Made by a program: the position numbers and the translations under genes. From positions 1 to 64,000 of IMG/VR virus record IMGVR_UViG_3300032304_001060: a DNA stretch of 64,000 nucleotides. One strand, given 5' to 3'. The notes under the pieces are model-generated. The model saw only the letters and a list, made by a program, of their open reading frames with translations, was not told the origin of the DNA and did no database searches. Positions 16,863-28,720 of the stretch are shown one piece after another; position 1 is the first letter of the stretch, and each line of letters begins with the position of its first letter. Origin of the DNA: a virus.

Positions 16863-17069
16863 TTATATCGGCTTCCAGTTTTTATTCACGATGAACTTAT
16901 CGTTTGAACTCTTTGAGTTAACAGACTCGCCTTGTACACCACGTCCACGCTGAGGCCATGAAACTATTGACGGCTCTGCTTTACCTTTTGGAGTGAAGTC
17001 AGGTACGTAATTAAAGTGCTGCTTAATACCACGACGCTGATTAACCATAAGTGGTTTGCGCTGCATCAT
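16863..17069 (-). CDS. Small basic hypothetical protein
   Basis: A 68-residue basic protein (MMQRKPLMVNQRRGIKQHF, ending DKFIVNKNWKPI). Its start overlaps the upstream stop by 4 bp. It has no membrane segment or known motif. Part of the late operon; virion accessory or unknown. Confidence 0.6.
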   Translation of the reverse strand: MMQRKPLMVNQRRGIKQHFNYVPDFTPKGKAEPSIVSWPQRGRGVQGESVNSKSSNDKFIVNKNWKPI

Positions 17070-17410
17070 GTGCCAAGACCGCCAATGTAACCAGCAGCAG
17101 TTCCGCCAGATCCTGTACCGTTCTTTGAAGAGGCAGGCTTTGTTCCCTTTTTCTTTTGTGAAGGGTCTACAGCGTAAGGATTTGGATTTAATGGGTTTGC
17201 AGACATTGCACCGACTGCAGATGGGTAACCAAATGTGTATCCGTTACCAACAAACCCAGATTCACGCTTACGCTTAAACCGACGGCGCTGTTGATCTTCA
17301 AGGTTAGTTCTTGTAGAGAATTGAGCAGAGAGTGGAGAAGTTGTTGGTCCAGTTAAATACTTACCGTATGTACCTTTAGGACTTCCGAATAGACCGTCAC
17401 CGATCGGCAT
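17066..17410 (-). CDS. Gly/Asn-rich hypothetical protein
   Basis: A 114-residue protein starting MPIGDGLFGSPKGTYGKYL. ATG at 17410 is chosen over an in-frame start 11 codons upstream because AAAGG lies 9 nt before it. The middle is very basic (EDQQRRRFKRKRESG) and the C-terminus is Gly/Ser-rich (GTGSGGTAAGYIGGLGT), suggesting disordered, nucleic-acid-contacting sequence. It overlaps both neighbours slightly. Unrecognised. Confidence 0.6.
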   Translation of the reverse strand: MPIGDGLFGSPKGTYGKYLTGPTTSPLSAQFSTRTNLEDQQRRRFKRKRESGFVGNGYTFGYPSAVGAMSANPLNPNPYAVDPSQKKKGTKPASSKNGTGSGGTAAGYIGGLGT

Positions 17411-17603
17411 AGTTAAAAACCTTTTCTGGATCGTAAACTGCAATAGACTTTTGAATCAATGTGTACCCAAGTTCCCGTGCATGATGTCCACAGAAGTACA
17501 ACTGACCAGTTAGCAGAGTTGCACGAATGGCTGCTCGTGCAGAGCACTTGTCACAACGATCTTCTGCTGTAAGTTCCTCTTCTGTTTTAATGATGGTAGT
17601 CAT
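17397..17603 (-). CDS. DUF7455-like Cys/His zinc protein
   Basis: A 68-residue protein with TAEDRCDKCSARAAIRATLL and YFCGHHARELG, giving CxxC and CxHH zinc ligands. This arrangement is known to me as a small family (DUF7455) widespread in Actinobacteria, where it is often encoded in the chromosome. Its presence supports an actinobacterial host. Function is unknown; a zinc-stabilised adaptor or regulator is likely. Confidence 0.75.
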   Translation of the reverse strand: MTTIIKTEEELTAEDRCDKCSARAAIRATLLTGQLYFCGHHARELGYTLIQKSIAVYDPEKVFNYADR

Positions 17604-17743
17604 TATTTCCCTTCACTTGACGCTGGTCCTTGATCCCCACCAAGTGGTGAAGGACCTTCAAACTGTCGAGTTAACGGCATTGCACCCGAACTGGTCACAC
17701 TAGCACCAGGATTGAACTGCTGCTTAGAAAGATTCCCGTTCAT
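17603..17743 (-). CDS. 46-residue tagged protein (NLSKQQF)
   Basis: A short frame from ATG 17743 to TAA overlapping the next ATG (TAATG). It encodes MNGNLSKQQFNPGASVTSSG followed by a Pro/Gly-rich, probably disordered tail. The N-terminus carries the NLSxxQF motif shared by many small proteins of this phage. Apart from the motif no domain is visible, so the protein is little more than tag plus linker. Confidence 0.6.
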   Translation of the reverse strand: MNGNLSKQQFNPGASVTSSGAMPLTRQFEGPSPLGGDQGPASSEGK

Positions 17744-18835: not shown

Positions 18836-19384
18836 TTACTTATATTGCTCTTTGACCAAAAATGGGGCAGATGTGTTGGCATCTAGTTGTGCAGCGATCT
18901 CTAGGGCCTTGAGAGGCTTCGCGCCCGCGTGAAGGGCGCCGATAGCGTAACTAGAGCCAGATCCGACCCCGTAGATGCCGTCATCGCTCATACAGATAGA
19001 GCAGTCGTCTGCAACGTCAAATACCTCGCCACCGATAGCAATGAGAAAGTTAAATCGAGAATCATTGACTTTTCCGTCGCCTTTGCCTTCATTAAAGTCA
19101 TATCCGTTATCTGTCAAACACTGTCTAAGATGTGGCATGACTTTGGTAATCATAAAGTGATAAATATCTTGACGATCTTTGAGAGTTGGCTTTGGTGGCT
19201 GCCAAATGTGTTGAGCAATATCACAAGGTCCGATTTCACCAGAACCTGCAATGAGGTACTCACCACGCTCTGTAATCTTCTCCATACGTGGATGATGGTA
19301 GATGCGACCGTTATCACCTGTAACTTGGTTATCGGCAGCAAAAACTACTTTGTCCGTGTATTGGACTGCCACGATCGTTGTCAT
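18836..19384 (-). CDS. Proteasome beta/HslV-like Ntn hydrolase
   Basis: The 182-residue product begins MTTIVAVQYTDKVVFAADNQ. Removal of Met would expose an N-terminal Thr nucleophile; the Asp of AAD lies at mature position 17, as in proteasome beta subunits, and MEKI supplies the general-base Lys near 35. The later GVGSGSSYAIGALHAG matches the conserved GSGS(x)YA element. ATG at 19384 (AAGGGG 7 nt upstream) is chosen because it puts Thr at position 2; an in-frame start 15 codons earlier would bury it. Such proteases self-process into rings. In a phage it might mature virion proteins, degrade host factors or alter host proteasome activity. It sits just before the gap leading to the tail of the lysis region. 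Confidence 0.82.
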   Translation of the reverse strand: MTTIVAVQYTDKVVFAADNQVTGDNGRIYHHPRMEKITERGEYLIAGSGEIGPCDIAQHIWQPPKPTLKDRQDIYHFMITKVMPHLRQCLTDNGYDFNEGKGDGKVNDSRFNFLIAIGGEVFDVADDCSICMSDDGIYGVGSGSSYAIGALHAGAKPLKALEIAAQLDANTSAPFLVKEQYK

Positions 19385-19461: not shown

Positions 19462-20205
19462 TTAGAGGAATTTGATCAATTCTGCCCAAGTCTTAGGGCC
19501 GACGATGCCGTTTGAGTCCACAATGTCGTGATTATCCTGAAATGCGATGACTGCCTTCTTTGTGTGAGGGCCGTAGTCGCCGTCAGCCAAGAGGCCGAGA
19601 GCCCTCTGAACGACCTTGACGCCCTCACCCTTAGCGCCAGGCTTGATCTGGCCTGGGAATGCTGGAGTCTCTGGTGCTGGGATCTTGGCGGTGACTTCGT
19701 TGCCCTTGTAGTTAGGGCGACCCCAACCGACGATAGAGACCAGAACCTTCTTCTTGTTGGCCTTGTACGCACGTGTCTGTGCACATACCTCGCCGCCATT
19801 GCGCTGGCTGCCCTTCTTCTTGCCTGAAGTGTTACCTTCGATAGTCAAGACGACCCCATCTGAGTCGATACCTGTGCAGATACCTACGTGCGAAATTCTA
19901 TCGACGCCGTCTCCTGGGAAATCAAAATACAGGATATCGCCTGGCTGTGGTGATTGACCGCAATCTGCCTCAAACCATGTTCCCATCTTCTTAAATGCTG
20001 CAGCACCTGCCACAGTAGAGACTGTATTAGGGATCTTTACACCTGCTTGATGAGCACACCAGTTAACAAAACTTCCACACCATGCAAGGTAGTTAGCCTT
20101 TGTAAAGGCGCCGTACTTGGTCTCGTTATCCTTTGGACCTTCGATTGTGCCAACCTCTTTTGTTGCAACTTCAATGATTGCTGCTGCTGTTCCTTTTTCT
20201 GCCAT
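19462..20205 (-). CDS. Endolysin: CHAP amidase/endopeptidase with peptidoglycan-binding domain
   Basis: The 247-residue protein has an N-terminal CHAP domain with catalytic Cys 43 in WCGSFVNWC, His 106 in ISHVGI and a polar third residue in TIEGNTS (about 123-125). A linker (APETPAFPGQI) leads to a C-terminal PG_binding_1 domain (GEGVKVVQRALGLLADGDYG, then KKAVIAFQ and GPKTWAEL). It would cleave peptide bonds of the host wall at the end of infection. No signal peptide is present, so it needs a holin. AAGGAAAGG precedes the ATG. Confidence 0.95.
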   Translation of the reverse strand: MAEKGTAAAIIEVATKEVGTIEGPKDNETKYGAFTKANYLAWCGSFVNWCAHQAGVKIPNTVSTVAGAAAFKKMGTWFEADCGQSPQPGDILYFDFPGDGVDRISHVGICTGIDSDGVVLTIEGNTSGKKKGSQRNGGEVCAQTRAYKANKKKVLVSIVGWGRPNYKGNEVTAKIPAPETPAFPGQIKPGAKGEGVKVVQRALGLLADGDYGPHTKKAVIAFQDNHDIVDSNGIVGPKTWAELIKFL

Positions 20206-20207
20206 GG

Positions 20208-20471
20208 TTATCTACCTTTCCTTGGTATGAAGTGATGATGCTCGTCATCGTTCTTAAATTCGCCGTTAGCATGAGCCTCGTCGTGTAACTTGTCCCACGC
20301 CGCATGATCATGCTGTGAAGGACCAACTATAACGCCATTGGCATTTATTGGCGCACCTTTATGCATACTAAACATGTGTGATCTAATGGACCACCCAACT
20401 TGTTTTGGAACCCAGCGCTTCTTCTTTGGAGGCTGTGCTTCCGACATATTCTCTTCTGTGTTAGCAGCCAT
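20208..20471 (-). CDS. His-rich hypothetical protein
   Basis: An 87-residue protein with a basic centre (PPKKKRWVPKQVGWSIRSH) and a His-rich C-terminus (SQHDHAAWDKLHDEAHANG, then DDEHHHFIPRKGR). Histidines could bind metal. It ends 2 nt before the endolysin start, so the two are probably co-translated. No family recognised. Confidence 0.6.
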   Translation of the reverse strand: MAANTEENMSEAQPPKKKRWVPKQVGWSIRSHMFSMHKGAPINANGVIVGPSQHDHAAWDKLHDEAHANGEFKNDDEHHHFIPRKGR

Positions 20472-20474
20472 TGT

Positions 20475-20867
20475 TTACCGTCCTCGCCCTCTATCTGCCT
20501 GCTTTTGAATTCCGCGGTTCTTTTCAACATTGCGCTGCTTGGCACCAATCGCTGTCTTTCGTGCAAGGCCGACTAATTGGTGGAATTGAGAATTGTTAGA
20601 GGTGATAAGCCCTGCAATGTGGGCCAAGTTCTCATTGTTGGTAGAGACACCCATGTGGGTCAATCCAGCCAAGAACATGTTGGTGCCGATCTTCTTAGGG
20701 TGGTTACCTAACTCTGCTGCAATCGCTGCACGGTGGTCGCCTGGTGTCTTTGGCAAGCCTTCGCCTGTGCGAGCAGGTGTGTTTACACCAGCAGCAGCGG
20801 GTGTAAGGAAGCCCTGAAACTGAGCACCAGACACTAGCGTGGTGTGTGGCTTTGGGTTGCTGGTCAT
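20475..20867 (-). CDS. Hypothetical protein with LVSGAQF motif
   Basis: A 130-residue protein starting MTSNPKPHTTLVSGAQFQGF at ATG 20867, inside the stop of the ParB-like gene (ATGA). The LVSGAQF stretch resembles the NLSxxQF tag. The rest is helical (GDHRAAIAAELGNHPKKIGT, then FHQLVGLARKTAIGAKQRN) with a basic C-terminus. No catalytic motif is seen. Confidence 0.65.
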   Translation of the reverse strand: MTSNPKPHTTLVSGAQFQGFLTPAAAGVNTPARTGEGLPKTPGDHRAAIAAELGNHPKKIGTNMFLAGLTHMGVSTNNENLAHIAGLITSNNSQFHQLVGLARKTAIGAKQRNVEKNRGIQKQADRGRGR

Positions 20868-21274
20868 GTGGTATCCCTCTTCGGCTTTCTCCACTCATCA
20901 TGTACTACAGGAACTAACATATTAGGATCTATATCTGCGGCAGCGGCTACACGGTGATGGCCTTCGCTGAGTTGATATCCTGCAGGCCAATGCTTACCCC
21001 CATCAAAATTACGACTTAATTCTACTGGCTTTCTGACACCTTCTCGTTTGATCGAGTCATAGAGAGATGCGCCCTTGCGTGCGCGGGTAGGAAGATATCT
21101 AGCATTTCTAATGGCGCCAGTCTTTGCCTCATATAACTTCTGATGCCAGAGGCTCTCCATATTGTCGCCACCTGGGTCTGCAGAGTAGTTGACCATGGAC
21201 TTGATCTCCCCTGCCTTCATGAACATGGGTAACTGTTCCCATTGCTGAGAAGAGAGATTATTTTCGGCGCTCAT
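20864..21274 (-). CDS. ParB/sulfiredoxin-like GHHR protein 1
   Basis: The 136-residue protein starts MSAENNLSSQQWEQLPMFMK, combining the NLSxxQ tag with a QLPMFM signature shared by three paralogues. The core GYQLSEGHHRVAAAADI contains the GHHR motif of the ParB/Srx fold, which binds nucleotides or acts as a nuclease, and VPVVHDEW follows. It lacks a DNA-binding HTH domain, so it is not a standard partition protein. It overlaps both neighbours by 4 bp. The activity is unknown; CTPase, nuclease or kinase functions occur in this fold. Confidence 0.75.
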   Translation of the reverse strand: MSAENNLSSQQWEQLPMFMKAGEIKSMVNYSADPGGDNMESLWHQKLYEAKTGAIRNARYLPTRARKGASLYDSIKREGVRKPVELSRNFDGGKHWPAGYQLSEGHHRVAAAADIDPNMLVPVVHDEWRKPKRDTT

Positions 21275-21708
21275 TTTCTAAACTTCACTCTCTCTGGAAG
21301 TTTCTCTCCAGTTGACTTGGCCCATGCATCACCTTGGTCACTTCTATCTCCTGAGTGAACTGGTGCTGGTACACCTGTTTTTGCTGCAATATCCTTAGCG
21401 GCTTTTAACATCGCTGTTGCCGCTTTCTTTCTTCTGGCTCCTGGAATAACATGGACGTCTAATATCTCGCCCGTGTTAGAGTTCCAGTGAAGATGACCTA
21501 GAGTAGTAGAAGGTTTATCTGCATCTGGTGCTTGAGATTCCAAGGTTACTCCAGCGGTATGGAGACCAAAGTTAGTTGCAGCATTTCCAAATGGCTTATC
21601 ACCTGTGGGAACTTCATATCGGATATGTGGAGCAAACTGCTTAAGGTTTAAGTTTGTATGTGGGGCTGGTTGCCATCCGTGTCCCCATTCGGAGTGGAAC
21701 TCGCTCAC
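21271..21708 (-). CDS. GNAT-type acetyltransferase-like protein 1
   Basis: A 145-residue protein with an N-terminal segment holding NLNLKQF, then a GNAT-like core. GHLHWNSNTGEILDVHVIPG is the beta4 strand, and ARRKKAATAMLKAAKDIA is the acetyl-CoA pyrophosphate loop and helix. It ends with SDQGDAWAKSTGEKLP, shared with a second copy at 27079-27450. GNAT enzymes transfer acetyl groups to amines; the substrate is unknown. The loop is a degenerate R/Q-x-x-G-x-G/A (ARRKKAA), so activity is uncertain. Confidence 0.75.
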   Translation of the reverse strand: MSEFHSEWGHGWQPAPHTNLNLKQFAPHIRYEVPTGDKPFGNAATNFGLHTAGVTLESQAPDADKPSTTLGHLHWNSNTGEILDVHVIPGARRKKAATAMLKAAKDIAAKTGVPAPVHSGDRSDQGDAWAKSTGEKLPERVKFRK

Positions 21709-21795
21709 TTACTTCTCCTCGCAGATACATTTGCACGTATCTTCTGTGCAGACTCCATATTCGATCTTGTGATCGCACTTGATACAGTTAAGCAT
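21709..21795 (-). CDS. 28-residue double CxxC peptide
   Basis: ATG 21795 opens a 28-codon frame, MLNCIKCDHKIEYGVC, then TCKCICEEK, with seven Cys in a ribbon-like order. Its start overlaps the end of the His-rich gene by 8 bp and its stop abuts the GNAT gene. A longer in-frame version exists upstream but lies inside another gene. It is probably a zinc-binding micro-protein; expression is uncertain. Confidence 0.5.
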   Translation of the reverse strand: MLNCIKCDHKIEYGVCTEDTCKCICEEK

Positions 21796-22165
21796 TGTGC
21801 ATGTGCTCATGTCCGAAGTCGGTGTAGTTCTCACGCTCATCTGCAGGACCTGCATCCATATTTGCGTGGTCTTCATCGTGATATGCCTTAAGAGTTGCGT
21901 GATCCATCTCATGCACATCAAGTGGGTGAGCATAGTGACCAGAAGAAAGCATGTGTGCTTTCAGTGCGGCATGATCACGCACATCGGTCGGTGCAGTACG
22001 CATGTGTGCGTCTACCTGTGCGTGGAGGCGGCCTGCCTGACTAAATGCTTCCATCGCATCAATGTCAGAACGGTCTAAGTGGATATGACTGTCTGCTGGC
22101 TTGTCGCAGCCTAGTTCAGGACAGACACGCGCTTTACCTTGCTGGAACTCTTCACCTCTGCTCAT
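21788..22165 (-). CDS. His/Asp-rich hypothetical protein
   Basis: A 125-residue protein starting MSRGEEFQQGKARVCPELGC. The N-terminus has CPELGCDKPADSHIH, a possible metal site, and the remainder is a His/Asp/Ala-rich helical region (HAALKAHMLSSGHYAHPLDV, DHATLKAYHDEDHANM). Another His-rich protein at 27447-27746 has a similar flavour. The start at 22165 follows the upstream stop by 16 nt; AGG is only 1 nt from the ATG, but CACAAT lies at -12 to -7, so initiation may be leaderless. Confidence 0.6.
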   Translation of the reverse strand: MSRGEEFQQGKARVCPELGCDKPADSHIHLDRSDIDAMEAFSQAGRLHAQVDAHMRTAPTDVRDHAALKAHMLSSGHYAHPLDVHEMDHATLKAYHDEDHANMDAGPADERENYTDFGHEHMHNA

Positions 22166-22171
22166 ACCTGT

Positions 22172-22177
22172 ATTGTG
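22172..22177 (-). promoter_or_regulatory. Leaderless -10 candidate (CACAAT)
   Basis: CACAAT at -12 to -7 from ATG 22165, preceded by CTGT. The same CTGTCACA element with the same 8-nt spacing to an ATGAG start occurs before the gene starting at 25483. Confidence 0.35.
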
Positions 22178-22181
22178 ACAG

Positions 22182-22304
22182 TTAGGCTTTGGTTCCACTC
22201 GCTGTATTCGTAGCAGTTGATTTTGGCCCCATCTGCATGGCGACATTGACGTACATGTCTTTAGGCATTACTTGGGCGCCTAGAAATTGCTGCTGAGAGA
22301 TCAT
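22182..22304 (-). CDS. 40-residue tagged protein (ISQQQF)
   Basis: ATG 22304 overlaps the upstream stop (ATGA) and opens a frame MISQQQFLGAQVMPKDMYVN continuing AMQMGPKSTATNTASGTKA. The ISQQQF opening matches the shared tag. The centre, MPKDMYVNVAMQM, resembles a short domain seen in phage virion proteins; the tail is disordered. Unrecognised otherwise. Confidence 0.65.
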   Translation of the reverse strand: MISQQQFLGAQVMPKDMYVNVAMQMGPKSTATNTASGTKA

Positions 22305-22663
22305 TGCTTGGGCCTCTTTACTGAGGCTGTAATTTGATTCTGCTTATAGCGAGGGATATTCGACCAAGTCTTTTCCCAGTTTGCTTTCATTTCCTGTACC
22401 CGTGGATCAGCACTAGCGTCTTTCCATCGGTGGAAGTCTGGAGAGATAGGAGCAATAAGACCGATCTGGTCACCTTTGTAGTGTGGATCAAGTGAGTTCT
22501 CTCTAGGAACAAAGCCCCACTTAAATGATTTGCCGTAATGCTCATCCCAACTTGGTGCAGGCGCAGAGCCAGGCTTCATAAGGCTAGGTGTTACACGAGG
22601 GTCCATAGTGCGTGGTTTGTAGTTAACAAACTGCTGATCGGAGATGTTTTCTGGAGATGTCAT
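22301..22663 (-). CDS. Tagged hypothetical protein (NISDQQF)
   Basis: A 120-residue protein starting MTSPENISDQQFVNYKPRTM, with the shared tag at residues 6-12. The body (GKSFKWGFVPRENSLDPHYK, IGLIAPISPDFHRWKDASAD) has no catalytic signature I can name. It overlaps both flanking genes by 4 bp, indicating coupled translation. Confidence 0.7.
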   Translation of the reverse strand: MTSPENISDQQFVNYKPRTMDPRVTPSLMKPGSAPAPSWDEHYGKSFKWGFVPRENSLDPHYKGDQIGLIAPISPDFHRWKDASADPRVQEMKANWEKTWSNIPRYKQNQITASVKRPKQ

Positions 22664-22803
22664 TTGTCAAACTGCTCCAAACTCAAATTGGCGTTCTTCA
22701 TCACGTCTTTTACTTGCGCCTCAACTTTAGAGCCATCCCATGCTGCCATAGGGTTCTTTGAGGAAGGAGACTTCAAACTATCTGGTTTCTCTAGTGGGTT
22801 CAC
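22660..22803 (-). CDS. 47-residue protein with the tag at its C-terminus
   Basis: A GTG start at 22803 overlaps the preceding TGA (GTGA), and the frame ends at TGA overlapping the next ATG. The product runs VNPLEKPDSLKSPSSKNPMA, then a short helix (SKVEAQVKDVMK), and ends ANLSLEQFDK. The NLSxxQF motif is therefore at the C-terminus rather than the N-terminus. No other domain is seen. Confidence 0.6.
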   Translation of the reverse strand: MNPLEKPDSLKSPSSKNPMAAWDGSKVEAQVKDVMKNANLSLEQFDK

Positions 22804-23012
22804 TTTTTTCTCCAAACCTTCACTTTAGCATCTGGCTTGTAATGAGTAACTCCTGGCGCTTTTGAACCACGAAGTCTGTGTGCTGCCACGAGGTCCTCAC
22901 CAATCATCTTCACAGCATGTACACGCACTTTCCTAGTGCTATCTAGATAATCACCAGGCTGCATGTCTCTTGCGGCAATGTGTGCTGCCTCAAATTCTGA
23001 AGCCCTACTCAT
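22800..23012 (-). CDS. Small beta-rich hypothetical protein
   Basis: A 70-residue protein: MSRASEFEAAHIAARDMQPG, then DYLDSTRKVRVHAVKMIGED and ending DAKVKVWRKK. The PGD(Y)-turn and following strands suggest a small SH3- or Hint-like barrel. Basic C-terminus. No family named. Confidence 0.6.
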   Translation of the reverse strand: MSRASEFEAAHIAARDMQPGDYLDSTRKVRVHAVKMIGEDLVAAHRLRGSKAPGVTHYKPDAKVKVWRKK

Positions 23013-23034
23013 GCTGGAATCTCTCTTAGTGGAG

Positions 23035-23397
23035 TCATTCGTCGCTCATCTTTTCTCCATAAGTGACGTAACGCTTTACGCCCTTTACTTTAAACCCTTT
23101 ATCAGAGGTCACAGAGTTTTTAGTCCACCATGACGCATCGGTAAGAGTTTTATCTCCCTTTAGAGGCGCTACCTCGTATACAGGAGAGACCATGGATAGT
23201 TGATGCCATCCCTTTTTATTATCTCGTCCTCTATACCCTGTGTACATACGATCGATGACGTGGTCTGCTGCACGGTCTGCATTAGTTCCTGCCCATACAA
23301 CACGATCATTACCTGGGAGGATTATTGTTCCAGGCTTCATCGTCTCTGCGGTTGAGCCGTGGAATAACTGTTGTGAGAGATTATCTTGAGCACTCAT
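23035..23397 (-). CDS. Arr-like ADP-ribosyltransferase-fold protein, tagged
   Basis: The 120-residue protein starts MSAQDNLSQQLFHGSTAETM. After the NLSxxLF tag, FHGSTAETMKPGTIILPGND and the following VVWAGTNADRAADHVIDR resemble the opening of rifampin ADP-ribosyltransferase (Arr), where the FHGT histidine and the first helix bind NAD. SPVYEVAPLKGD parallels the Arr (V)YxVEPxG...D segment. It lies at the head of three further ADP-ribosyltransferase-like genes. The call rests on motif resemblance; some catalytic positions are not conserved, so activity is uncertain. Confidence 0.6.
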   Translation of the reverse strand: MSAQDNLSQQLFHGSTAETMKPGTIILPGNDRVVWAGTNADRAADHVIDRMYTGYRGRDNKKGWHQLSMVSPVYEVAPLKGDKTLTDASWWTKNSVTSDKGFKVKGVKRYVTYGEKMSDE

Positions 23398-23828
23398 GCT
23401 GGCATTACCCTTGGAGGATTAAAGGTGCGGTTGCGGGCACGCAACTTGACTTGCGTTAATCCTTGCTCATCTTTATATTTTTTAGCAGTTTTACGAAATT
23501 GTCGGTCTACCAATACCGCAGCGCCTGGACGAACTGTTACTTCTTTTTCATTAGACCCAGGCCAAATTGCATTTTCCTTAACTGCTTTACGGCCTTCTTT
23601 TGTCTTTGGGTCAATAATTGCAGCAGGATGTACTTTTCCAACAAGCACAACGCTTTTAGTTACGTCTCCAGGAAGTCTAGGAATACTTAACTCAGAAAAG
23701 TTAGAAGCAACACTTGATTTAGATGACCAGTGCATACCAAGAGGTTTTTTAACTTCATGAGTGCCCCCTAATCCACGGTATACAGGGACAGTAAATAAAG
23801 ATGCAGATAAGTTATCTTGGGCGCTCAT
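23394..23828 (-). CDS. ADP-ribosyltransferase-like protein A, tagged
   Basis: The 144-residue protein starts MSAQDNLSASLFTVPVYRGL. It shows the three landmarks of arginine-type mono-ADP-ribosyltransferases in order: Arg in VYRG, a Ser-x-Ser strand (MHWSSKSSVASNFS) and an E-x-E pair in NEKEVTVRPGAAVLV. Such enzymes transfer ADP-ribose from NAD to protein arginines; phage T4 injects one (Alt). The C-terminus RTFNPPRVMPA is shared with the next two paralogues. It overlaps both neighbours by 4 bp. Function is inferred from motifs only. Confidence 0.65.
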   Translation of the reverse strand: MSAQDNLSASLFTVPVYRGLGGTHEVKKPLGMHWSSKSSVASNFSELSIPRLPGDVTKSVVLVGKVHPAAIIDPKTKEGRKAVKENAIWPGSNEKEVTVRPGAAVLVDRQFRKTAKKYKDEQGLTQVKLRARNRTFNPPRVMPA

Positions 23829-24211
23829 GCTGGCATCTCTCGTGGTGGGTTGTATGTGCGCTTACGAGATTTTACATCGCCAAAATTGCGTAGTGTTGTT
23901 CTTCCTGTAACGAGAACTGGTTTACCAAAGCGAACAGGGACTTCTTGCTCATGCTCGTACTCTCCGCCTACTTCTTTTCGCTTAAGAGTACTTGTCCTAG
24001 TCTCTACAGAACTCATAGGAACATTTGCGTGATAGATAACTCGTGTAGATCCAGATTCGCCACCTTTTCGTGCAAATCCCTCTGCTACATCAGGGGATGC
24101 GCTCCAGTGAGTCCCTGCGTGCTTTGACTCTAACTTTTCTCCAGGCTTAATATACAGACCTCTATGCACCTGAAAGAATAACTCATTAGACAAGTTGTCT
24201 TCTGCGCTCAT
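23825..24211 (-). CDS. ADP-ribosyltransferase-like protein B, tagged
   Basis: A 128-residue paralogue of its neighbours, beginning MSAEDNLSNELFFQVHRGLY. Landmarks: Arg in VHRG, THWSASPDVAEGFARK as the Ser-x-Ser strand and helix, and the E-x-E pair in HEQEVPVRFGKPVLVTG. It ends RKRTYNPPREMPA. The order and spacing of motifs fit an R-S-E ADP-ribosyltransferase. The conserved C-terminal codons also carry the purine-rich ribosome site of the next gene, so part of their conservation may be at the RNA level. Confidence 0.68.
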   Translation of the reverse strand: MSAEDNLSNELFFQVHRGLYIKPGEKLESKHAGTHWSASPDVAEGFARKGGESGSTRVIYHANVPMSSVETRTSTLKRKEVGGEYEHEQEVPVRFGKPVLVTGRTTLRNFGDVKSRKRTYNPPREMPA

Positions 24212-24618
24212 GCCTTCATCTCCCTTGGCGGATTATATGTGCGCTTGCGCGTCCTTCTCTCGCCTCGCTCACCATCTGGTAGCAGTGATGGGGGTTTCAG
24301 GCTTGTTTTACCTGTTACCAGCACAGTTGCTCCTTCTTTTACTGGAATTTCTTTTTCGTTTAGTGGATCTTGCCCCATAAAACCAGCAAAACCTCTTTGA
24401 CCAAGTACTTTTGTATTGGTCTCGACAGATGAGATAGGAATCTTGGCGTGAATAATAGTTGCGTGTGTTAAATGAAATTTTGCAGCAAATTTTTTAGCAA
24501 CATTCTCAGATGCGCTGAAGTGCATGCCCACGCCGTAATTAGGATTAAGATTTTTTTCTTTGATGCCTCGATGTGCTTCAAAAAATAGTTCATGAGACAA
24601 GTTATCTTCTGCAGCCAT
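24208..24618 (-). CDS. ADP-ribosyltransferase-like protein C, tagged
   Basis: A 136-residue paralogue starting MAAEDNLSHELFFEAHRGIK at ATG 24618, whose A is shared with the upstream stop (TAATG). An earlier in-frame ATG three codons upstream would break the shared N-terminal pattern. It has Arg in AHRG, GMHFSASENVAKKFAAK and the E-x-E pair in LNEKEIPVKEGATVLVTG, then ends RKRTYNPPREMKA. Same predicted NAD-dependent transferase fold as its neighbours. Confidence 0.68.
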   Translation of the reverse strand: MAAEDNLSHELFFEAHRGIKEKNLNPNYGVGMHFSASENVAKKFAAKFHLTHATIIHAKIPISSVETNTKVLGQRGFAGFMGQDPLNEKEIPVKEGATVLVTGKTSLKPPSLLPDGERGERRTRKRTYNPPREMKA

Positions 24619-25028
24619 TAGTCCCACTTCGATTCATCTAGTGCAACGCCCTTGCGTTCTGCCCAGTCATTATCTGAAGAGGGCTTACCAAATGCTTTGC
24701 CACGCTTAACATCTGACATATCAGCGTGAATGACAGGAACTAATTCATCAGGGCGATGCTTGAGCCCTGCGATAAGGCGATGATGGCCATCAACAAGTTC
24801 TGCCTTCCCACCTTCATCTTGTGATTGGTGAAATATGTGAAATGGCTTTTGAATAGGTTTTTCTTTAATTGCCTTATCAAGACCGCTAAGTTCGTTCTCG
24901 CGCTGTTTCACATCGGTCATCTGGCGCACTCCGCCGTAGTAATGTGAATCGCTCAGTTCGTGAGTTGACGCAATCTCTTTTGGCGTCATAAACATAGCCA
25001 GTTGTTGCGCTGAGACTGAGGATGACAT
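24618..25028 (-). CDS. ParB/sulfiredoxin-like GHHR protein 2
   Basis: The 136-residue protein starts MSSSVSAQQLAMFMTPKEIA and has the core AELVDGHHRLIAGLKHRPDE followed by LVPVIHADMSDVKRG. GHHR marks the ParB/Srx nucleotide-binding loop. The QxMFMTxKEI signature is shared with the other three copies in this region. The stop overlaps the next start (TAATG). Activity unknown. Confidence 0.72.
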   Translation of the reverse strand: MSSSVSAQQLAMFMTPKEIASTHELSDSHYYGGVRQMTDVKQRENELSGLDKAIKEKPIQKPFHIFHQSQDEGGKAELVDGHHRLIAGLKHRPDELVPVIHADMSDVKRGKAFGKPSSDNDWAERKGVALDESKWD

Positions 25029-25483
25029 TAGTAGTCCTCCTTAAGAGCCTGACGAGCATCATGGATATTGTCGTGGTGAACCACTGGAAATAAATAATTA
25101 GGATGTTCTTCTGCTGCAACTGCAACTCTATGATGCCCACCTAGCATCTCTTTTGTTTCAAAATTTATTGGTATGCGTGGTGATTTAAATCCTTCGTGCG
25201 CTATATCTTGAGCCAAGTTACTATATTTTTCGCCGTGCTCTGCTCCACCCATGTCAGCATTAGTTACTGACTCATCATACTTTCGTTCCCATAACTCACT
25301 GTTAGTTTCTGGTCGAATCTTTTTGCCACCCCATTCTTCTGGGTCTGGCTCATCTGTGGCTCTTCCTTCACGATCACCAGGCCAAGGGCTGATGTGAGTT
25401 TGTATCTCTTTACCTGTCATGAACATAGGCAGTTGTCCTTTAGCCAAGTGTTCCCCTAAAGAGAAGTGCTTGCGTCTGCTCAT
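25028..25483 (-). CDS. ParB/sulfiredoxin-like GHHR protein 3
   Basis: A 151-residue protein starting MSRRKHFSLGEHLAKGQLPM and continuing FMTGKEIQTHISPWPGDREG. The core is TKEMLGGHHRVAVAAEEHPN with FPVVHHDN after it. ATG at 25483 is used; a GTG two codons upstream also exists. There is no ribosome site, but CACACT lies at -12 to -7, so it may be a leaderless first gene of the array. Confidence 0.72.
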   Translation of the reverse strand: MSRRKHFSLGEHLAKGQLPMFMTGKEIQTHISPWPGDREGRATDEPDPEEWGGKKIRPETNSELWERKYDESVTNADMGGAEHGEKYSNLAQDIAHEGFKSPRIPINFETKEMLGGHHRVAVAAEEHPNYLFPVVHHDNIHDARQALKEDY

Positions 25484-25489
25484 GCACAC

Positions 25490-25495
25490 AGTGTG
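25490..25495 (-). promoter_or_regulatory. Leaderless -10 candidate (CACACT)
   Basis: CACACT at -12 to -7 from ATG 25483, within CTGTCACA. An 8-nt match to the element before 22165 at identical spacing supports a shared promoter-like signal. Confidence 0.35.
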
Positions 25496-25544
25496 ACAGA
25501 TTTTGCCGCGGTAGGGTTTTTAAAACCGACGAGGCGCTTTTTCC

Positions 25545-26039
25545 TTAGATGTCAAGAGACTGGTTGAACTCATAAAGCGGAATCCGCCATGAGCCCTCTG
25601 GTGCATACTTCCATTCATCCCGCTGACAGTCCTCCATACGCATCCAACCAAATATCTCAACTTCGGAGTAGTAGTCGCGGTCTAGCACTCGTGCGCCCAC
25701 CAGGAGCCATCCCTCTCGGATGTCCTTAGGAAATACAGGTATCTCATCTTTGGTGCGGATGGACTTGACTTCAATGTTCGTACCTACCTCAGCGATGTCT
25801 TTGCGGAAGTAGTGCTCTTCATTGGTGTAGAAGGGGAAGGTGAATGACTTCTTGTATAACTTAGCAACTGCGTACTCTGCAACGATAGTCCTTACATTGG
25901 CGGCAATTTCTGGTTCAAGTATTGCTTTGTTGGTGTAGTTAGGACGATCAACGCTGCCAAACTTAATCATCCATCGGTTGAGTGCGATATCTGCACATGC
26001 ACGTACTTCTTCTTTAGATAACTTGACGATGTGGCTCAT
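25545..26039 (-). CDS. PD-(D/E)XK-like nuclease candidate
   Basis: A 164-residue protein with the layout of small restriction-fold nucleases. A helix with a conserved Glu (TIVAEYAVAKLY) comes first. KDIAEVGTNIEVKSIRTKDE then supplies the D...E-x-K pair, and REGWLLVGARVLDRDYYSE follows as a core strand. Phage members of this group may process DNA ends or cut host DNA. It lies at the end of a run of small genes and the start of the ParB-like array. The fold assignment is inference. Confidence 0.65.
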   Translation of the reverse strand: MSHIVKLSKEEVRACADIALNRWMIKFGSVDRPNYTNKAILEPEIAANVRTIVAEYAVAKLYKKSFTFPFYTNEEHYFRKDIAEVGTNIEVKSIRTKDEIPVFPKDIREGWLLVGARVLDRDYYSEVEIFGWMRMEDCQRDEWKYAPEGSWRIPLYEFNQSLDI

Positions 26040-26042
26040 TCT

Positions 26043-26111
26043 TTATGCGCTCCATAGAGTAAGGGCCAATATAATCCAAAGAACAATTACAGAGGCGATG
26101 ATGTACTTCAT
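26043..26111 (-). CDS. 22-residue single-span membrane peptide
   Basis: ATG 26111, inside the stop of the zinc-ribbon gene (ATGA overlap), opens a 22-codon frame MKYIIASVIVLWIILALTLW ending SA. It is essentially one transmembrane helix. Tight coupling on the upstream side and a 3-nt gap to the next gene support real translation. Possible membrane micro-protein. Confidence 0.5.
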   Translation of the reverse strand: MKYIIASVIVLWIILALTLWSA

Positions 26112-26215
26112 TCGTTATTTTTGCACTTAGGGCACTGCTTTGTTGGATGTGCCGTTCCTTGAGGTACGGTGAATGTGCCGCCGCAATCAAAGCAGAGGAC
26201 GATGAGGTCACTCAC
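26108..26215 (-). CDS. 35-residue zinc ribbon peptide
   Basis: A GTG start at 26215 (AGAGAGAA upstream) gives MSDLIVLCFDCGGTFTVPQG followed by TKQCPKCKNNE. Two CxxC knuckles form a complete zinc ribbon. It overlaps the membrane peptide gene by 4 bp. Confidence 0.65.
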   Translation of the reverse strand: MSDLIVLCFDCGGTFTVPQGTAHPTKQCPKCKNNE

Positions 26216-26227
26216 TGTAGTTCTCTC

Positions 26228-26368
26228 TTAATCTTCTGCCCAGTCGCGGATGACATCGGCCAATTCAGCGATCTCGATGCTGTGCTCGTACCCACTGTCG
26301 TGGAGAAATTCTATAAATTCATCGGGTGCAACTAGTGTGCCGTTAATAATTGAGAATAGATCGCTCAT
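26228..26368 (-). CDS. 46-residue acidic hypothetical protein
   Basis: ATG 26368 overlaps the upstream stop (ATGA), with AAGGAG 9 nt upstream. The product MSDLFSIINGTLVAPDEFIE, then FLHDSGYEHSIEIAELAD and DWAED is acidic and helical. Unrecognised. Confidence 0.6.
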   Translation of the reverse strand: MSDLFSIINGTLVAPDEFIEFLHDSGYEHSIEIAELADVIRDWAED

Positions 26369-26526
26369 ACTGTGCTCCTTGCGATATCTGCACACCGTTC
26401 GCCTGCACGGATAATTGCATAGTCAATGTCATCGATAGGCGGATATGTTGCCTCTAGTTCGTCTTCAATTGCTTTTGCGATGCGCTCACGCAACTCCGTT
26501 AATTGTACTTCGACTGTCTTCTCCAT
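26365..26526 (-). CDS. 53-residue hypothetical protein
   Basis: ATG 26526 (GAAGGGGC 7 nt upstream) opens MEKTVEVQLTELRERIAKAI followed by EDELEATYPPIDDIDYAIIR and AGERCADIARSTV. Helical, charged. It overlaps the next gene by 4 bp. Unrecognised. Confidence 0.6.
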   Translation of the reverse strand: MEKTVEVQLTELRERIAKAIEDELEATYPPIDDIDYAIIRAGERCADIARSTV

Positions 26527-26567
26527 TTTTTGCCCCTTCTTCTTCAGTAAAGGCTACTGCCTCAAAG

Positions 26568-26972
26568 TTATAGCGTCAAATCTTCTTCGTTAGGGGAGGT
26601 AACTACATTCTTATGGTAGTAATGACCGCCGTTATGTGTTCGCACTCGATGACAATTGGCACAGACGACGTCGCATTTATCTAATTCTTCTAGCATCTTG
26701 TCCCAACTGCCTCTCTCGGCTAATTTTGACGGTTGGAATTTCTTTTTATGTGGGTCGCGGTGGTCTAGATCGAGTACGTAGTACGGAAATTTGCCTCCGC
26801 AGTCCTTACAGCCGTGAAATTCCTTAAATTTATGCAAAAAATCACGTAATTGGCTCTTCTTTTCGCTATTTCGAGCAATATATGCGCTTTTATGGCGTCT
26901 GTAGTGCCTCTTTGAGTCTTCACGAGCCTTAATTCGGCCCTCTTCTGTGCCCTTATCTTTTCTTGGAGACAT
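26568..26972 (-). CDS. HNH endonuclease, small
   Basis: A 134-residue protein with a basic helical N-terminus (KAREDSKRHYRRHKSAYIAR) and an HNH module. The module reads CKDCGGKFPYYVLDLDHRDP, then CDVVCANCHRVRTHNGG, with the first CxxC and the final CxxC/H arrangement for zinc and the DH pair for catalysis. A second, related protein is at 35094-35504. Likely a site-specific nicking or homing enzyme. TAGGCT at -12 to -7 and no ribosome site suggest a leaderless start. Confidence 0.88.
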   Translation of the reverse strand: MSPRKDKGTEEGRIKAREDSKRHYRRHKSAYIARNSEKKSQLRDFLHKFKEFHGCKDCGGKFPYYVLDLDHRDPHKKKFQPSKLAERGSWDKMLEELDKCDVVCANCHRVRTHNGGHYYHKNVVTSPNEEDLTL

Positions 26973-26978
26973 GTATGG

Positions 26979-26984
26979 AGCCTA
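26979..26984 (-). promoter_or_regulatory. Leaderless -10 candidate (TAGGCT)
   Basis: TAGGCT fits TAnnnT and lies exactly at -12 to -7 from the ATG at 26972. No Shine-Dalgarno sequence lies between it and the start. Confidence 0.42.
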
Positions 26985-27008
26985 ACACATGTCGTTACTG
27001 AGAAAGTA

Positions 27009-27077
27009 CTAGTGCTCGTTCGCCCAAAACATCACGAAGACAATAAATAAAAACATTAAGGTAAGAAACGCGGCCAT
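27009..27077 (-). CDS. 22-residue single-span membrane peptide
   Basis: ATG 27077, 1 nt after the GNAT gene stop, opens a 22-codon frame MAAFLTLMFLFIVFVMFWAN ending EH. It is a single strongly hydrophobic helix, like the peptide at 26043-26111 but unrelated in sequence. It fills what would otherwise be a gap before the HNH gene. Confidence 0.5.
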   Translation of the reverse strand: MAAFLTLMFLFIVFVMFWANEH

Positions 27078-27078
27078 T

Positions 27079-27450
27079 TTAGTCGAGGTGTCCTTTGTAT
27101 TCTTCAATATTCTTTTTAAGAGAAGGTACTCTACCACCTACCGACTTGGCCCATGCATCGCCTTCGGGGGTTCTGGTCTCAGAATGTTTTGGCGCGATGA
27201 TACTTTCCTTTGCAGATACCTCATGGGCATAGTTATAGAGGGCTGTAGCCACACCCTTACGGCGGTGCTCTGCCTTAACCTCTAGCGAGAGTATCTCACC
27301 GCTATGTGGATGCCAACTCATCTGCCCCATAAAGTCAGGTTGATTCTCAGGTGTACGCCCGATCATTGCTACAAAGTGGGCAGGATCGCCCTCTGGAGTG
27401 TGCCCATAAGCATAAGAGAGATTACCGAACTGTTTGCCCAGGTTGCTCAC
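27079..27450 (-). CDS. GNAT-type acetyltransferase-like protein 2, tagged
   Basis: The 123-residue protein starts MSNLGKQFGNLSYAYGHTPE (NLGKQF tag). Its GNAT core has GQMSWHPHSGEILSLEVKAE and then HRRKGVATALYNYAHEVS, a good acetyl-CoA-binding R-x-x-G-x-A loop. It ends TPEGDAWAKSVGGRVPSLKK, shared with the copy at 21271-21708. It probably acetylates an unknown amine or protein. It overlaps the next upstream gene by 4 bp. Confidence 0.8.
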   Translation of the reverse strand: MSNLGKQFGNLSYAYGHTPEGDPAHFVAMIGRTPENQPDFMGQMSWHPHSGEILSLEVKAEHRRKGVATALYNYAHEVSAKESIIAPKHSETRTPEGDAWAKSVGGRVPSLKKNIEEYKGHLD

Positions 27451-27746
27451 TCAAAGTACTTTCCTAGAGAGGAGATGACAGATTTGGCTGAACGGCGTAG
27501 GTCGCCCGAATCTGATGACCAGTCGCTGCCGTGGGCGTAGTAGTGGGCGTCATCCAGGAGGCTTGAGGCCTGGTCATCGGTCATATTGACGTGGAGATGG
27601 TTGTTGTCACTTCCCTCGATATGGCTATGTGACAGCCCTGTCTCATCGCCCATGCGATCGATGTGGTCCATCAGGAAGTGATGGCCAGCATGACGTATCT
27701 TAAAGATGTCTCGTGGCTCATCAAATTGTTTTCCTAAGTTGCTCAT
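27447..27746 (-). CDS. His-rich tagged hypothetical protein
   Basis: A 99-residue protein starting MSNLGKQFDEPRDIFKIRHA and ending SAKSVISSLGKYFE, so a tag-like motif is present at both ends (NLGKQF and SLGKYF). The body contains HHFLMDHIDRMGDE and SHSHIEGSDNNHLHVNMTDD, a possible metal-binding or phosphoesterase-like region. ATG 27746 is preferred over the GTG one codon upstream because AGGAG is then 5 nt away. Confidence 0.65.
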   Translation of the reverse strand: MSNLGKQFDEPRDIFKIRHAGHHFLMDHIDRMGDETGLSHSHIEGSDNNHLHVNMTDDQASSLLDDAHYYAHGSDWSSDSGDLRRSAKSVISSLGKYFE

Positions 27747-27754
27747 CACAACTC

Positions 27755-28252
27755 CTACTTATACGTATCATCGTACTGCGCCTCAATCATTGAGCCGTAG
27801 TACTTCACTGGATGTAGGGCGTCTTTAAATTGCTCTGCTGACAATGCAACCCTATGGTGACCGCCGAGGATGTAGGACTGAACAGGGAATCCTTTGAGGT
27901 TGGTCTCAGGGCGTGGCTGTAGCGAGATTACTCCGTGAGTGCCGCCCTGCTTCTCCATGACCTTCTTGAGTGTAGAGCGGGGTGTCACCCCTAGTTTCTG
28001 GCCGTGCTTGGTCACACGGTCTATGCCCTTGAGTCGAGGACTACCGACGCCGTAGCGGGCGCTATTTTCACCAGTCTCCTTGGACTCCCGCAATTTGACA
28101 TCCCAGGCCTGATCTTCTTCTAGGCCGTCTCGGTCTCCTGGGTACATGTGGAAATTGTCTTTGATCTCTTGACCCGTCATAAACATAGGCTGATATCCCT
28201 GAGTTAGGGCTTTGCCCAAATCCTTGGGAGGGGTCATGCGCTTCTTGGCCAT
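27755..28252 (-). CDS. ParB/sulfiredoxin-like GHHR protein 4
   Basis: A 165-residue protein starting MAKKRMTPPKDLGKALTQGY, then QPMFMTGQEIKDNF, and the core QSYILGGHHRVALSAEQFKD. It is the largest of the four paralogues and the first minus-strand gene leaving the control region. ATG 28252 is chosen over one six codons upstream because CACAAT lies at -12 to -7 and no ribosome site exists for either. Activity unknown. Confidence 0.72.
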   Translation of the reverse strand: MAKKRMTPPKDLGKALTQGYQPMFMTGQEIKDNFHMYPGDRDGLEEDQAWDVKLRESKETGENSARYGVGSPRLKGIDRVTKHGQKLGVTPRSTLKKVMEKQGGTHGVISLQPRPETNLKGFPVQSYILGGHHRVALSAEQFKDALHPVKYYGSMIEAQYDDTYK

Positions 28253-28258
28253 GTGGCT

Positions 28259-28264
28259 ATTGTG
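28259..28264 (-). promoter_or_regulatory. Leaderless -10 candidate (CACAAT)
   Basis: CACAAT at -12 to -7 from ATG 28252, the third such hexamer before a small late gene. This is the first gene leftward of the control region, where a promoter is expected. Confidence 0.38.
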
Positions 28265-28387
28265 GCCCATTTTGGCTACTGCCTCAGCCTAAAAGTCGTC
28301 AACCGTGTCTCTCACCTGGCTGGTCCTGTGCGCGATCTCGCTTAATGGTGGGGGGTCAACTGATCATCTTGTCTTGTGTTAACAACA

Positions 28388-28426
28388 TCACCTGACTATT
28401 AATCAGGTGACAATGTGTAAACACAT
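28388..28426. repeat. Two adjacent palindromes (TCACCTGA..TCAGGTGA and ATGTGTAAACACAT)
   Basis: TCACCTGA and TCAGGTGA flank 7 nt at 28388-28410. A perfect 14-bp palindrome ATGTGTAAACACAT follows at 28413-28426. They look like operator sites or small hairpins. Confidence 0.6.
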
Positions 28427-28570
28427 GCGTTGTTATCAGGTGGTACAGGTTGCTCGGTGACAACTTCGGTGACGTGATCACTTCGGCTACTGCACTCGTG
28501 GTACACATGGCTGTGTTGGTAACACCAGACTGACAGCCATCTGCGCCAGATGTAATCAGGTCACATGTAC

Positions 28571-28641
28571 ACGTTGTTATATCGATTCCGACTGCCTATT
28601 GGCATCGTGGTGCATTCACCTGTCGGTAGATATAACAACGT
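28571..28641. repeat. Long inverted repeat with 13-bp arms
   Basis: ACGTTGTTATATC (28571-28583) is matched by GATATAACAACGT (28629-28641), with inner CCGAC/GTCGG extending the symmetry. The arms contain the GTTGTTA half-site found repeatedly in this region. It could be a cruciform or dimer-dimer binding site. Confidence 0.7.
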
Positions 28642-28676
28642 GGCCACGTGTTATTTATTTATTTGTTGCTGTTGTT

Positions 28677-28690
28677 ACGTTGTACAACGT
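28677..28690. repeat. Perfect palindrome ACGTTGTACAACGT
   Basis: A 14-bp perfect palindrome built from the same ACGTTGT half-site as the long inverted repeat 40 bp away. It is a good candidate operator for a dimeric regulator. Confidence 0.65.
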
Positions 28691-28708
28691 TGTCGTACTC
28701 AATCAGCC

Positions 28709-28720
28709 ACGTCGCGACGT
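28709..28720. repeat. Perfect palindrome ACGTCGCGACGT
   Basis: A 12-bp perfect palindrome 18 bp after the previous one, differing mainly in its centre. Likely part of the same operator cluster. Confidence 0.55.

What the first reader, a model, noticed from the sequence alone, without database searches (positions are those of the whole stretch)
23035..24618. Tandem array of four ADP-ribosyltransferase-like genes
Four adjacent, overlapping genes encode proteins with R...S-x-S...E-x-E landmarks (three) or Arr-like FHG features (one), all with the same N-terminal tag. Tandem duplication with diversification suggests several targets, such as host RNA polymerase, ribosome or defence proteins. Phage ADP-ribosyltransferases usually come singly or in pairs.
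Basis: partly seen in the sequence, partly recalled or inferred. Interest (0 to 1): 0.72.

Follow-up and report, generated by a model that had tools for sequence, protein, structure and literature searches.

The report
Phage enzyme cassette sharing one tag
Four neighbouring phage genes do encode ADP-ribosyltransferase-fold proteins, but they belong to a larger, reshuffled cassette of unrelated small enzymes that carry the same short front-end peptide, which may be an address label that loads them into the virus particle or onto another common partner.

Summary
Four minus-strand genes (23035-24618), each overlapping the next by 4 bases, encode ART-fold proteins. Three are R-S-ExE enzymes; the fourth is Arr-like. 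Predicted structures, PDB comparisons and conserved active-site residues agree.

"Tandem duplication" does not hold: the three R-S-E copies are not one clade (AU p 0.0003), and two have their nearest relatives in other phages.

The larger finding is the "tag". NLSxxQF and variants sit at the N-terminus not only of ARTs but of ParB-like, GNAT and other small proteins throughout a cassette upstream of the lysin. In 2,217 unique genes from relatives the motif occurs 116 times in the first 45 residues (shuffles: mean 2). In 1,117 longer proteins it occurs 95 times N-terminally and never in residues 46-90. A domain-blind DNA scan for the tag returned almost only such genes. Orthologous domains carry different tag forms, or none.

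Best reading: a modular set of host-modifying enzymes sharing one docking peptide, probably for virion packaging and injection, like T4 Alt/internal proteins or a polyvalent protein split into genes. The docking partner, packaging and enzyme activity are untested.

The parts
23035..23397 (-). ART1: Arr-like ADP-ribosyltransferase (FHG motif) with tag MSAQDNLSQQLF
   Evidence: ORF; model pLDDT 79.4; Foldseek top three rows Arr/Arr-2, prob 1.00; VIA Z 10.4 to Arr-2; profile search of PDB hits only three Arr chains, E 0.084-0.44; Pfam Arr-ms hit by 8 of 22 family members, best E 0.001, not by ART1 itself
23394..23828 (-). ART2: R-S-ExE ADP-ribosyltransferase-like, tag MSAQDNLSASLF
   Evidence: homology to ART3/ART4 family and 47% to L014 protein; tree groups it with L014
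23825..24211 (-). ART3: R-S-ExE ADP-ribosyltransferase-like, tag MSAEDNLSNELFF
24208..24618 (-). ART4: R-S-ExE ADP-ribosyltransferase-like, tag MAAEDNLSHELFF (low-confidence, probably disordered in the model)
   Evidence: Foldseek top rows ART fold (TreX, TreTu, pertussis S1, cholera A); the 50 VIA rows are ART-superfamily titles except one (rank 29, IcmR-IcmQ), Z up to 7.8
24618..25028 (-). ParB/Srx-like protein (GHHR motif), variant N-terminus SVSAQQLAMF
   Evidence: PHROG phrog_21912 E 6.6e-06; same HMM family as 20864
25028..25489 (-). ParB/Srx-like protein, variant N-terminus LGEHLAKGQLPMF
   Evidence: weak PHROG matches; family HMM
27755..28270 (-). ParB/Srx-like protein, variant N-terminus LGKALTQGYQPMF
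   Evidence: no PHROG/Pfam match; family HMM
27447..27749 (-). tagged small protein (NLGKQF), no family
27079..27450 (-). GNAT acetyltransferase-like with tag MSNLGKQF
   Evidence: Pfam PF00583 E 2.1e-05, over cut-off
22660..22803 (-). small protein with the motif at its C-terminus (NLSLEQFDK)
22800..23012 (-). 70-aa protein, untagged here; orthologs carry no tag, MSAEDNLSKPQF or MSNLNHKQF
22301..22663 (-). tagged small protein (NISDQQF), no family
21271..21708 (-). GNAT acetyltransferase-like with motif NLNLKQF
   Evidence: Pfam PF00583 E 3.4e-05, over cut-off
20864..21274 (-). ParB/Srx-like protein with tag MSAENNLSSQQW
   Evidence: PHROG phrog_21912 E 5.7e-05 and ParB-like partition E 0.0013
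20208..20471 (-). small protein whose relatives carry MPDNLNNAQF; degenerate here (ENMSEAQ)
19462..20205 (-). lysin-like gene downstream of the cassette, used as anchor (name from recall; not confirmed by a family search)
17603..17743 (-). 46-aa tagged peptide (MNGNLSKQQF) between lysin and terminase regions; family found only in cassette-bearing loci
17066..17410 (-). GGP-family small protein, internal variant motif PLSAQF; relatives have NLSSQF

Best explanation
Genes 23035-24618 encode four small ADP-ribosyltransferase-fold enzymes: three of the R-S-ExE protein-modifying type and one of the Arr type. They are part of a variable cassette of about twenty small genes (20208-28270) upstream of the lysin on the strand of the head and lysis genes. 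Its members have unrelated folds (ART, Arr, ParB/Srx-like, GNAT, others) but share a short, probably unstructured N-terminal peptide, NLSxxQF. The likeliest mechanism: the peptide docks each enzyme onto one common partner, most probably a capsid or other virion component during head assembly. The enzymes are then carried in the particle and injected with the DNA, where they ADP-ribosylate or acetylate host proteins at the start of infection. Tag and domain are exchanged separately between phages, so new cargo is recruited by gaining the tag. Shown: ART folds and conserved active sites; the tag, its position, its spread over unrelated families, its exchange, and its co-occurrence with the cassette. 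Inferred: docking function, packaging, injection, catalytic activity and targets.
For: ART fold and active sites. Tag enrichment: 116 of 2,217 unique genes against a shuffle mean of 2.0 (maximum 7); N-terminal 95 against residues 46-90 0 of 1,117 proteins of 95 aa or more; 35 single-linkage groups after tag removal, some of them chance singletons. Domain-blind DNA scan of IMG/VR for the tag: 38 matches in 35 stretches; 36 head complete genes of 76-181 aa, 1 opens a 22-aa frame (chance) and 1 runs off its contig. The tag is kept at protein level with mixed codons, 6 Leu and 6 Ser codons. Tag exchange: ART1 is 86% identical to L005:4508-4873 but has a different tag form; one 70-aa family occurs untagged and with two tag forms; 15 pairs at 60% identity or more join the two main tag forms. 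Co-occurrence: of 51 lysin-anchored loci with 3 kb or more upstream, 17 have a strict tag, 14 have an ART, and all 14 ART loci are among the 17. GGP-family proteins between lysin and terminase carry the motif in 18 of 19 cassette loci and in 0 of 21 loci without a cassette. The domain repertoire matches that of injected polyvalent proteins (PMC5512222, passages), and ARTs near head genes are argued to be packaged (PMC9503650, section). Nearest cultured counterpart: Mycobacterium phage Myrna gp78, two R-S-E ART-like stretches in one 477-aa protein, encoded about 5.6 kb before the annotated portal gene.
Against: No virion proteomics exists here for this phage or a tagged relative. No prohead protease or docking partner was identified. 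The nearest cultured relatives by capsid protein (Streptomyces phage LuckySocke, 61.8%) show no tagged cassette in the 50 kb scanned by script. Many family members have only a degenerate tag or none: strict or loose tag in 19 of 27 R-S-E, 24 of 29 Arr-like, 13 of 31 ParB-like and 15 of 20 GNAT. Co-occurrence of tag and cassette may partly reflect one phage clade. A late-region position also fits proteins that act late inside the cell.
Confidence: 0.5

Rival explanations
1. The tag recruits the enzymes to a non-virion partner made or present late in infection, such as host RNA polymerase, the ribosome or the replication machinery, so that several modifying enzymes act on one complex inside the producing cell.
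For: Shared docking peptide on different modifying enzymes. ParB-like members also carry QLxMF-like stretches that resemble the bacterial sliding-clamp motif (recalled). T4 Alt and Mod enzymes act on RNA polymerase (recalled; PMC5512222 passage for Alt).
Against: Two small-protein families encoded between lysin and terminase also carry the tag and go with the cassette. The ART tags do not match QLxLF. The cassette's domain repertoire mirrors injected proteins.
Confidence: 0.3
2. The ARTs are toxins aimed at eukaryotic grazers that eat infected cells (the trojan-horse idea put forward for ARTs of freshwater phages).
For: PMC6802176 proposes it for 24 freshwater phages encoding VIP2-like ARTs (passages).
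Against: The proteins are 120-144 aa with no room for binding or translocation domains. They share a tag with ParB-like and GNAT proteins. Habitat and grazers were not tested.
Confidence: 0.04
3. ART1 is a drug- or metabolite-modifying enzyme of the Arr kind that helps the host survive, and the others are unrelated passengers.
For: Fold and profile matches to rifampin ADP-ribosyltransferase.
Against: Same tag and same operon as the R-S-E ARTs. In relatives the Arr-like family is multicopy (5 at one locus) and very divergent (24% mean column identity), which suits diversified effectors better than a drug-resistance gene.
Confidence: 0.05
4. The ART folds are catalytically dead and serve only as structural or binding modules.
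For: Some relatives lose ExE (L059:1340-1684).
Against: R, H-W and both glutamates are kept at 90% or more across 26 sequences; all three R-S-E members of the window have R, S and E-x-E.
Confidence: 0.06

Closest known systems
T4 Alt and T4 internal proteins with the capsid targeting sequence
   Same: ART and other small proteins sharing a short N-terminal peptide, encoded in the late region of a phage related to contractile-tailed phages (T4 features recalled; T4 papers seen only as search listing, and Alt in a passage)
   Different: A different peptide; cargo is mainly modifying enzymes of several folds; no prohead protease or cleavage site found; packaging not shown
Polyvalent proteins (PMC5512222)
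   Same: Same domain kinds: ART, ParB/Srx-like, GNAT
   Different: There the domains are fused in one large polypeptide; here they are separate genes of about 70-200 aa sharing a peptide
Mycobacterium phage Myrna gp78 (477 aa; record label 'ParB C-terminal domain')
   Same: R-S-E ART domain of the same kind; encoded shortly before the annotated portal gene
   Different: Two ART-like stretches fused in one protein; no NLSxxQF motif
Arr / Arr-2 rifampin ADP-ribosyltransferases
   Same: Fold and catalytic histidine
   Different: About 12-17% identity; shorter; tagged; in a phage cassette
ARTs of freshwater phages (PMC6802176)
   Same: ART genes in metagenomic phages
   Different: That paper reads them as VIP2-like toxins against eukaryotes; the passages seen describe no tag or multi-enzyme cassette

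Membership tests
ART superfamily, R-S-E clade (ART2, ART3, ART4) | ART fold | tested here: met
   ART4 model: Foldseek top rows are ARTs; VIA rows with Z up to 7.8 are almost all ARTs. Z under 8 alone would be weak; consistency of the list and of the active site carries it. ART2 and ART3 by homology.
ART superfamily, R-S-E clade (ART2, ART3, ART4) | R on strand 1, S/T after strand 2, E-x-E at strand 5 | tested here: met
   R17 invariant; H33, W34, E88, E90 at 90% or more in 26 rows; strands at 12-19, 33-35 and 90-93. Placement inferred from sequence and secondary structure, not from coordinates.
ART superfamily, R-S-E clade (ART2, ART3, ART4) | NAD binding and ADP-ribosyl transfer | not testable with these tools
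   needs protein
Arr family (ART1) | Fold closest to Arr | tested here: met
   Foldseek top three rows Arr/Arr-2; VIA Z 10.4 / 8.6 / 8.2 to three Arr entries, Tpt1 at 8.4 tied with the latter two
Arr family (ART1) | Pfam Arr-ms match over its cut-off | tested here: inconclusive
   8 of 22 relatives match, best E 0.001; ART1 itself has no match at E 0.1
Arr family (ART1) | H-Y-D catalytic triad (recalled) | tested here: inconclusive
   H aligned with the Arr HGT histidine; the Y and D equivalents are not resolved
Virion-packaged cargo with a targeting peptide (T4 type) | One short N-terminal peptide on unrelated proteins | tested here: met
Virion-packaged cargo with a targeting peptide (T4 type) | Presence in the virion and dependence on the peptide | not testable with these tools
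   phage known only as a metagenomic record; no proteomics
Virion-packaged cargo with a targeting peptide (T4 type) | Processing by a prohead protease | not tested
   no such protease recognised; a proteasome-like gene lies at 18836-19384 but is not linked to the tag
Polyvalent proteins | Several effector domains in one polypeptide | tested here: not met
   longest ORF matching any of the four family HMMs is 201 aa
Sliding-clamp binding motif QLxLF (recalled) | Match of the tag to the motif | tested here: not met
   the four ART tags read NLSQQLF, NLSASLF, NLSNELFF, NLSHELFF; only ParB-like members have QLxM[FY]

The most novel reading that the evidence does not exclude
NLSxxQF is a new virion-loading address peptide. 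These phages carry a mix-and-match set of injected enzymes, each gaining entry to the particle by acquiring this seven-residue tag, so a polyvalent injected effector has been broken into separately exchangeable genes.
Probability: 0.4. Interest if true: 0.85.

Novelty: new variant of a known kind. Interest (0 to 1): 0.62.

Why it matters
If the tag is an address, its presence alone predicts which unknown small phage proteins are delivered effectors: a DNA pattern for it already pulls out such genes whatever their fold. It would give a compact, portable loading signal to test, and would explain how phages assemble and swap sets of early-acting enzymes. Even if the partner is not the virion, one docking peptide shared by ART, Arr, GNAT and ParB-like proteins points to a single complex that all of them act on.

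Tried and rejected
Tandem duplication: rejected by the tree test, with the caveat that several branches are long. Direct matches of the window's DNA or proteins in 50,697 GenBank phages: none for the 8-kb stretch at near identity, none for ART4 and ART3, none for relatives of ART1 or of the R-S-E family, the ParB-like 27755 protein or the GGP protein. GenBank phages do hold the capsid protein family (86 records). Pfam gives nothing for the four proteins singly. A scan of bacterial and archaeal genome contigs with the R-S-E alignment found no relative; it rested on a single C-terminal peptide pattern, so it is a weak negative, and no named host was obtained. Host and habitat remain unproven. 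No tRNA in the window. Promoter and terminator scans of 22500-28800 found no more than shuffles. The PDB profile search with the R-S-E family gave only one hit, E 0.65, an uncharacterised protein. A paper on Myrna capsids (PMC7150772, found) was searched for gp78 in the virion; gp78 is not mentioned in the main text (passages only). Two literature searches for a described shared peptide or tagged cassette returned no paper; others gave the packaged-ART, polyvalent-protein and freshwater-phage papers cited here. That a tagged cassette is undescribed rests on these searches of open-licence papers only.

Rows dropped: genes under 45 aa and duplicates by identical last 30 residues, loci with under 4.5 kb downstream, or under 3 kb upstream and no family hit. 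L002 and L026 are one contig. Some loci overlap on one contig. In one search the Arr-like HMM includes the tag and so over-assigns: the 76-aa proteins of L158 and L169 belong to the 22800-23012 family. My gene callers dropped ART4 because of an overlapping frame; it is supported. In L003 and L004 the caller likewise chose a shorter start for one R-S-E ART.

Full report
What is there. The window is bases 1-64,000 of a 94,728-base virus record. Four ORFs on the minus strand fill 23035-24618 and overlap by four bases each, as in a translationally coupled operon. They lie in a block of small minus-strand genes (20208-28270) upstream of a lysin-like gene (19462-20205); the terminase-, portal- and capsid-like genes follow further on the same strand (names by my reading of the sequence, the capsid confirmed).

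ART1 (23035-23397). Its 22-sequence family keeps H13, G23, A43, Y74 and V76 throughout, and N6, L7 and Q10 of the tag at 90% or more. The AlphaFold2 model (mean pLDDT 79.4) matches Arr and Arr-2 first in Foldseek (E 3.4e-03 to 4.3e-03, probability 1.00). In the second look VIA gives Z 10.4, 3.5 A rmsd over 104 residues to Arr-2, with tRNA 2'-phosphotransferases close behind (Z 8.4). The sequence profile finds only three Arr chains in the PDB (E 0.084 to 0.44), with the Arr HGT histidine aligned. Pfam Arr-ms is hit by 8 of 22 members, best E 0.001, and ART-PolyVal by one.

ART2-ART4. The 26-sequence family has invariant R17, G31 and P131, and near-invariant H33, W34, E88, E90 and R/Y positions near the C-terminus. 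The ART4 model (mean pLDDT 76.7; residues 1-7 under 50) matches ARTs first in Foldseek (TreX, TreTu, pertussis S1, cholera A; best E 0.011, probability 0.99). VIA gives Z up to 7.8 over about 100 residues; its 50 rows are ART-superfamily entries by title except one, IcmR-IcmQ at rank 29. Z below 8 is weak alone; the consistency of the list with the conserved R, S and ExE is what convinces. In predicted viral structures the closest are three uncultured-phage proteins, then (after a fourth) Mycobacterium phage Myrna B5LJ89, a Gordonia phage protein and ParB-annotated proteins of mycobacteriophages Stubby and Bigswole. Myrna gp78 has the same length (477 aa) as B5LJ89 and is annotated 'ParB C-terminal domain'. 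My R-S-E HMM finds two stretches in it (8.1e-08 and 9.9e-06 for a one-sequence search). It lies about 5.6 kb before the annotated portal gene. That gp78 is B5LJ89 is inferred.

Not a recent duplication. In a 41-sequence tree ART4 pairs with L005:6196-6597 (support 100/97) and ART2 groups with L014 and L037 (96/93). Holding the window's three together costs 56 log-likelihood units (p-AU 0.000333); long branches are a caveat. ART1 is 86% identical to a gene of L005. Loci of relatives hold 0 to 6 ARTs: of 86 loci with any family hit, 30 have three, 26 two, 14 one, 9 none, 4 four, 1 five and 2 six, some loci overlapping on one contig. A four-ART array is within the ordinary range of this group.

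The tag. The N-terminal peptide is shared with ParB-like, GNAT and other proteins. In 2,217 unique genes of 45 aa or more from the fetched loci, N[LI][SNG]x(0-3)Q[FLW] occurs in the first 45 residues of 116 (100 shuffles: mean 2.0, maximum 7). Of 1,117 proteins of 95 aa or more, 95 have it there and none in residues 46-90. A looser form gives 148 against 25. After removing the tag the 139 tagged proteins fall into 35 single-linkage groups, 13 with two or more members; some singletons are clearly chance. In this genome the strict motif marks 7 of 21 genes of the block and 2 of 145 elsewhere (Fisher p 5.9e-06). Tag presence by family: R-S-E 19 of 27, Arr-like 24 of 29, ParB-like 13 of 31, GNAT 15 of 20, counting strict or loose forms; several of the rest have degenerate forms such as HLGRQW.

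A scan of IMG/VR for the tag's DNA with no reference to any domain gave 38 matches in 35 stretches. Of these, 36 open complete genes of 76-181 aa: ARTs, Arr-like, ParB-like, GNAT and other small proteins; one opens a 22-aa frame and one runs off its contig. Some of these contigs were already known from protein searches.

Selection and exchange. The tag is spelled with 6 leucine and 6 serine codons across 175 unique genes, and the four ART tags differ at synonymous sites, so it is kept as peptide. ART1 and its 86%-identical relative carry different tag forms, with close DNA similarity starting just after the tag. The 70-aa family at 22800-23012 occurs untagged and with two different tag forms. 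Fifteen pairs of proteins at 60% identity or more join the two main tag forms.

Context. From 80 lysin-anchored loci, 51 have at least 3 kb upstream: 17 have a strict tag there, 14 an ART, 17 a ParB-like or GNAT gene; all 14 ART loci are among the 17 with a tag. Downstream, a GGP-family protein carries the motif in 18 of 19 cassette loci (the window has PLSAQF) and in none of 21 loci without a cassette, 3 of which have an untagged GGP protein. A second small-protein family, tagged in most, is found in 13 of 19 against 0 of 21. L002 and L026 are the same contig, and most cassette-free loci have more distant lysins, so phylogeny is a confounder; L018 and L020, with lysins 87% identical, lack the cassette.

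How it likely works. A docking peptide common to many small modifying enzymes, encoded with late genes and shared by two small proteins near the head genes, fits loading into the particle and injection. The cited reviews argue the same for ARTs near head genes and for polyvalent proteins (PMC9503650, abstract, passages and sections 13 and 27 read; PMC5512222, passages only). The alternative, a common intracellular partner, is not excluded. No step beyond fold, residues, tag and distribution is shown.

Novelty. Phage ARTs, packaged ARTs and combined ART/ParB/GNAT repertoires are known. A cassette of separate genes joined by one exchangeable peptide was not found in the searches made (open-licence papers only). 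I therefore rate it a new variant of a known kind.

Noticed in passing
window 18836-19384 (-): A 182-aa proteasome/HslV-like protein next to the lysin, conserved in cassette-bearing relatives (Pfam PF00227 E 4.7e-05; below the cut-off in the six-frame search). Possibly a phage protease; unexplained.
   Followed up: partly
window 46332-46616 (-): A lone gene far from the cassette begins MNLSPRQF; another (48280-48963) has NLSRPQF near its C-terminus.
   Followed up: no
window 17603-17743 and 17066-17410 (-): Two small-protein families between lysin and terminase carry the tag; the tagged half of the GGP protein is a separate gene in some phages (L017) and fused in others.
   Followed up: partly
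L016, record positions 91555-92451 and 92462-93385 (-): Two adjacent glycine-rich proteins with near-identical first 45 or so residues, like a duplicated fibre gene.
   Followed up: no
L181:941-2374 (Mycobacterium phage Myrna gp78): Annotated 'ParB C-terminal domain', but holds two R-S-E ART-like stretches and no match to my ParB-like profile; probably mislabelled.
   Followed up: partly
window 23394-24618, C-termini: The R-S-E ARTs end in a conserved R-x-R-x-Y-N-P-P-R-x-M strand that served as a specific search pattern; with it no relative was found in the genome contigs.
   Followed up: partly
window 26568-26972 (-): An HNH-endonuclease-like ORF (by eye, not searched) sits inside the cassette region.
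   Followed up: no
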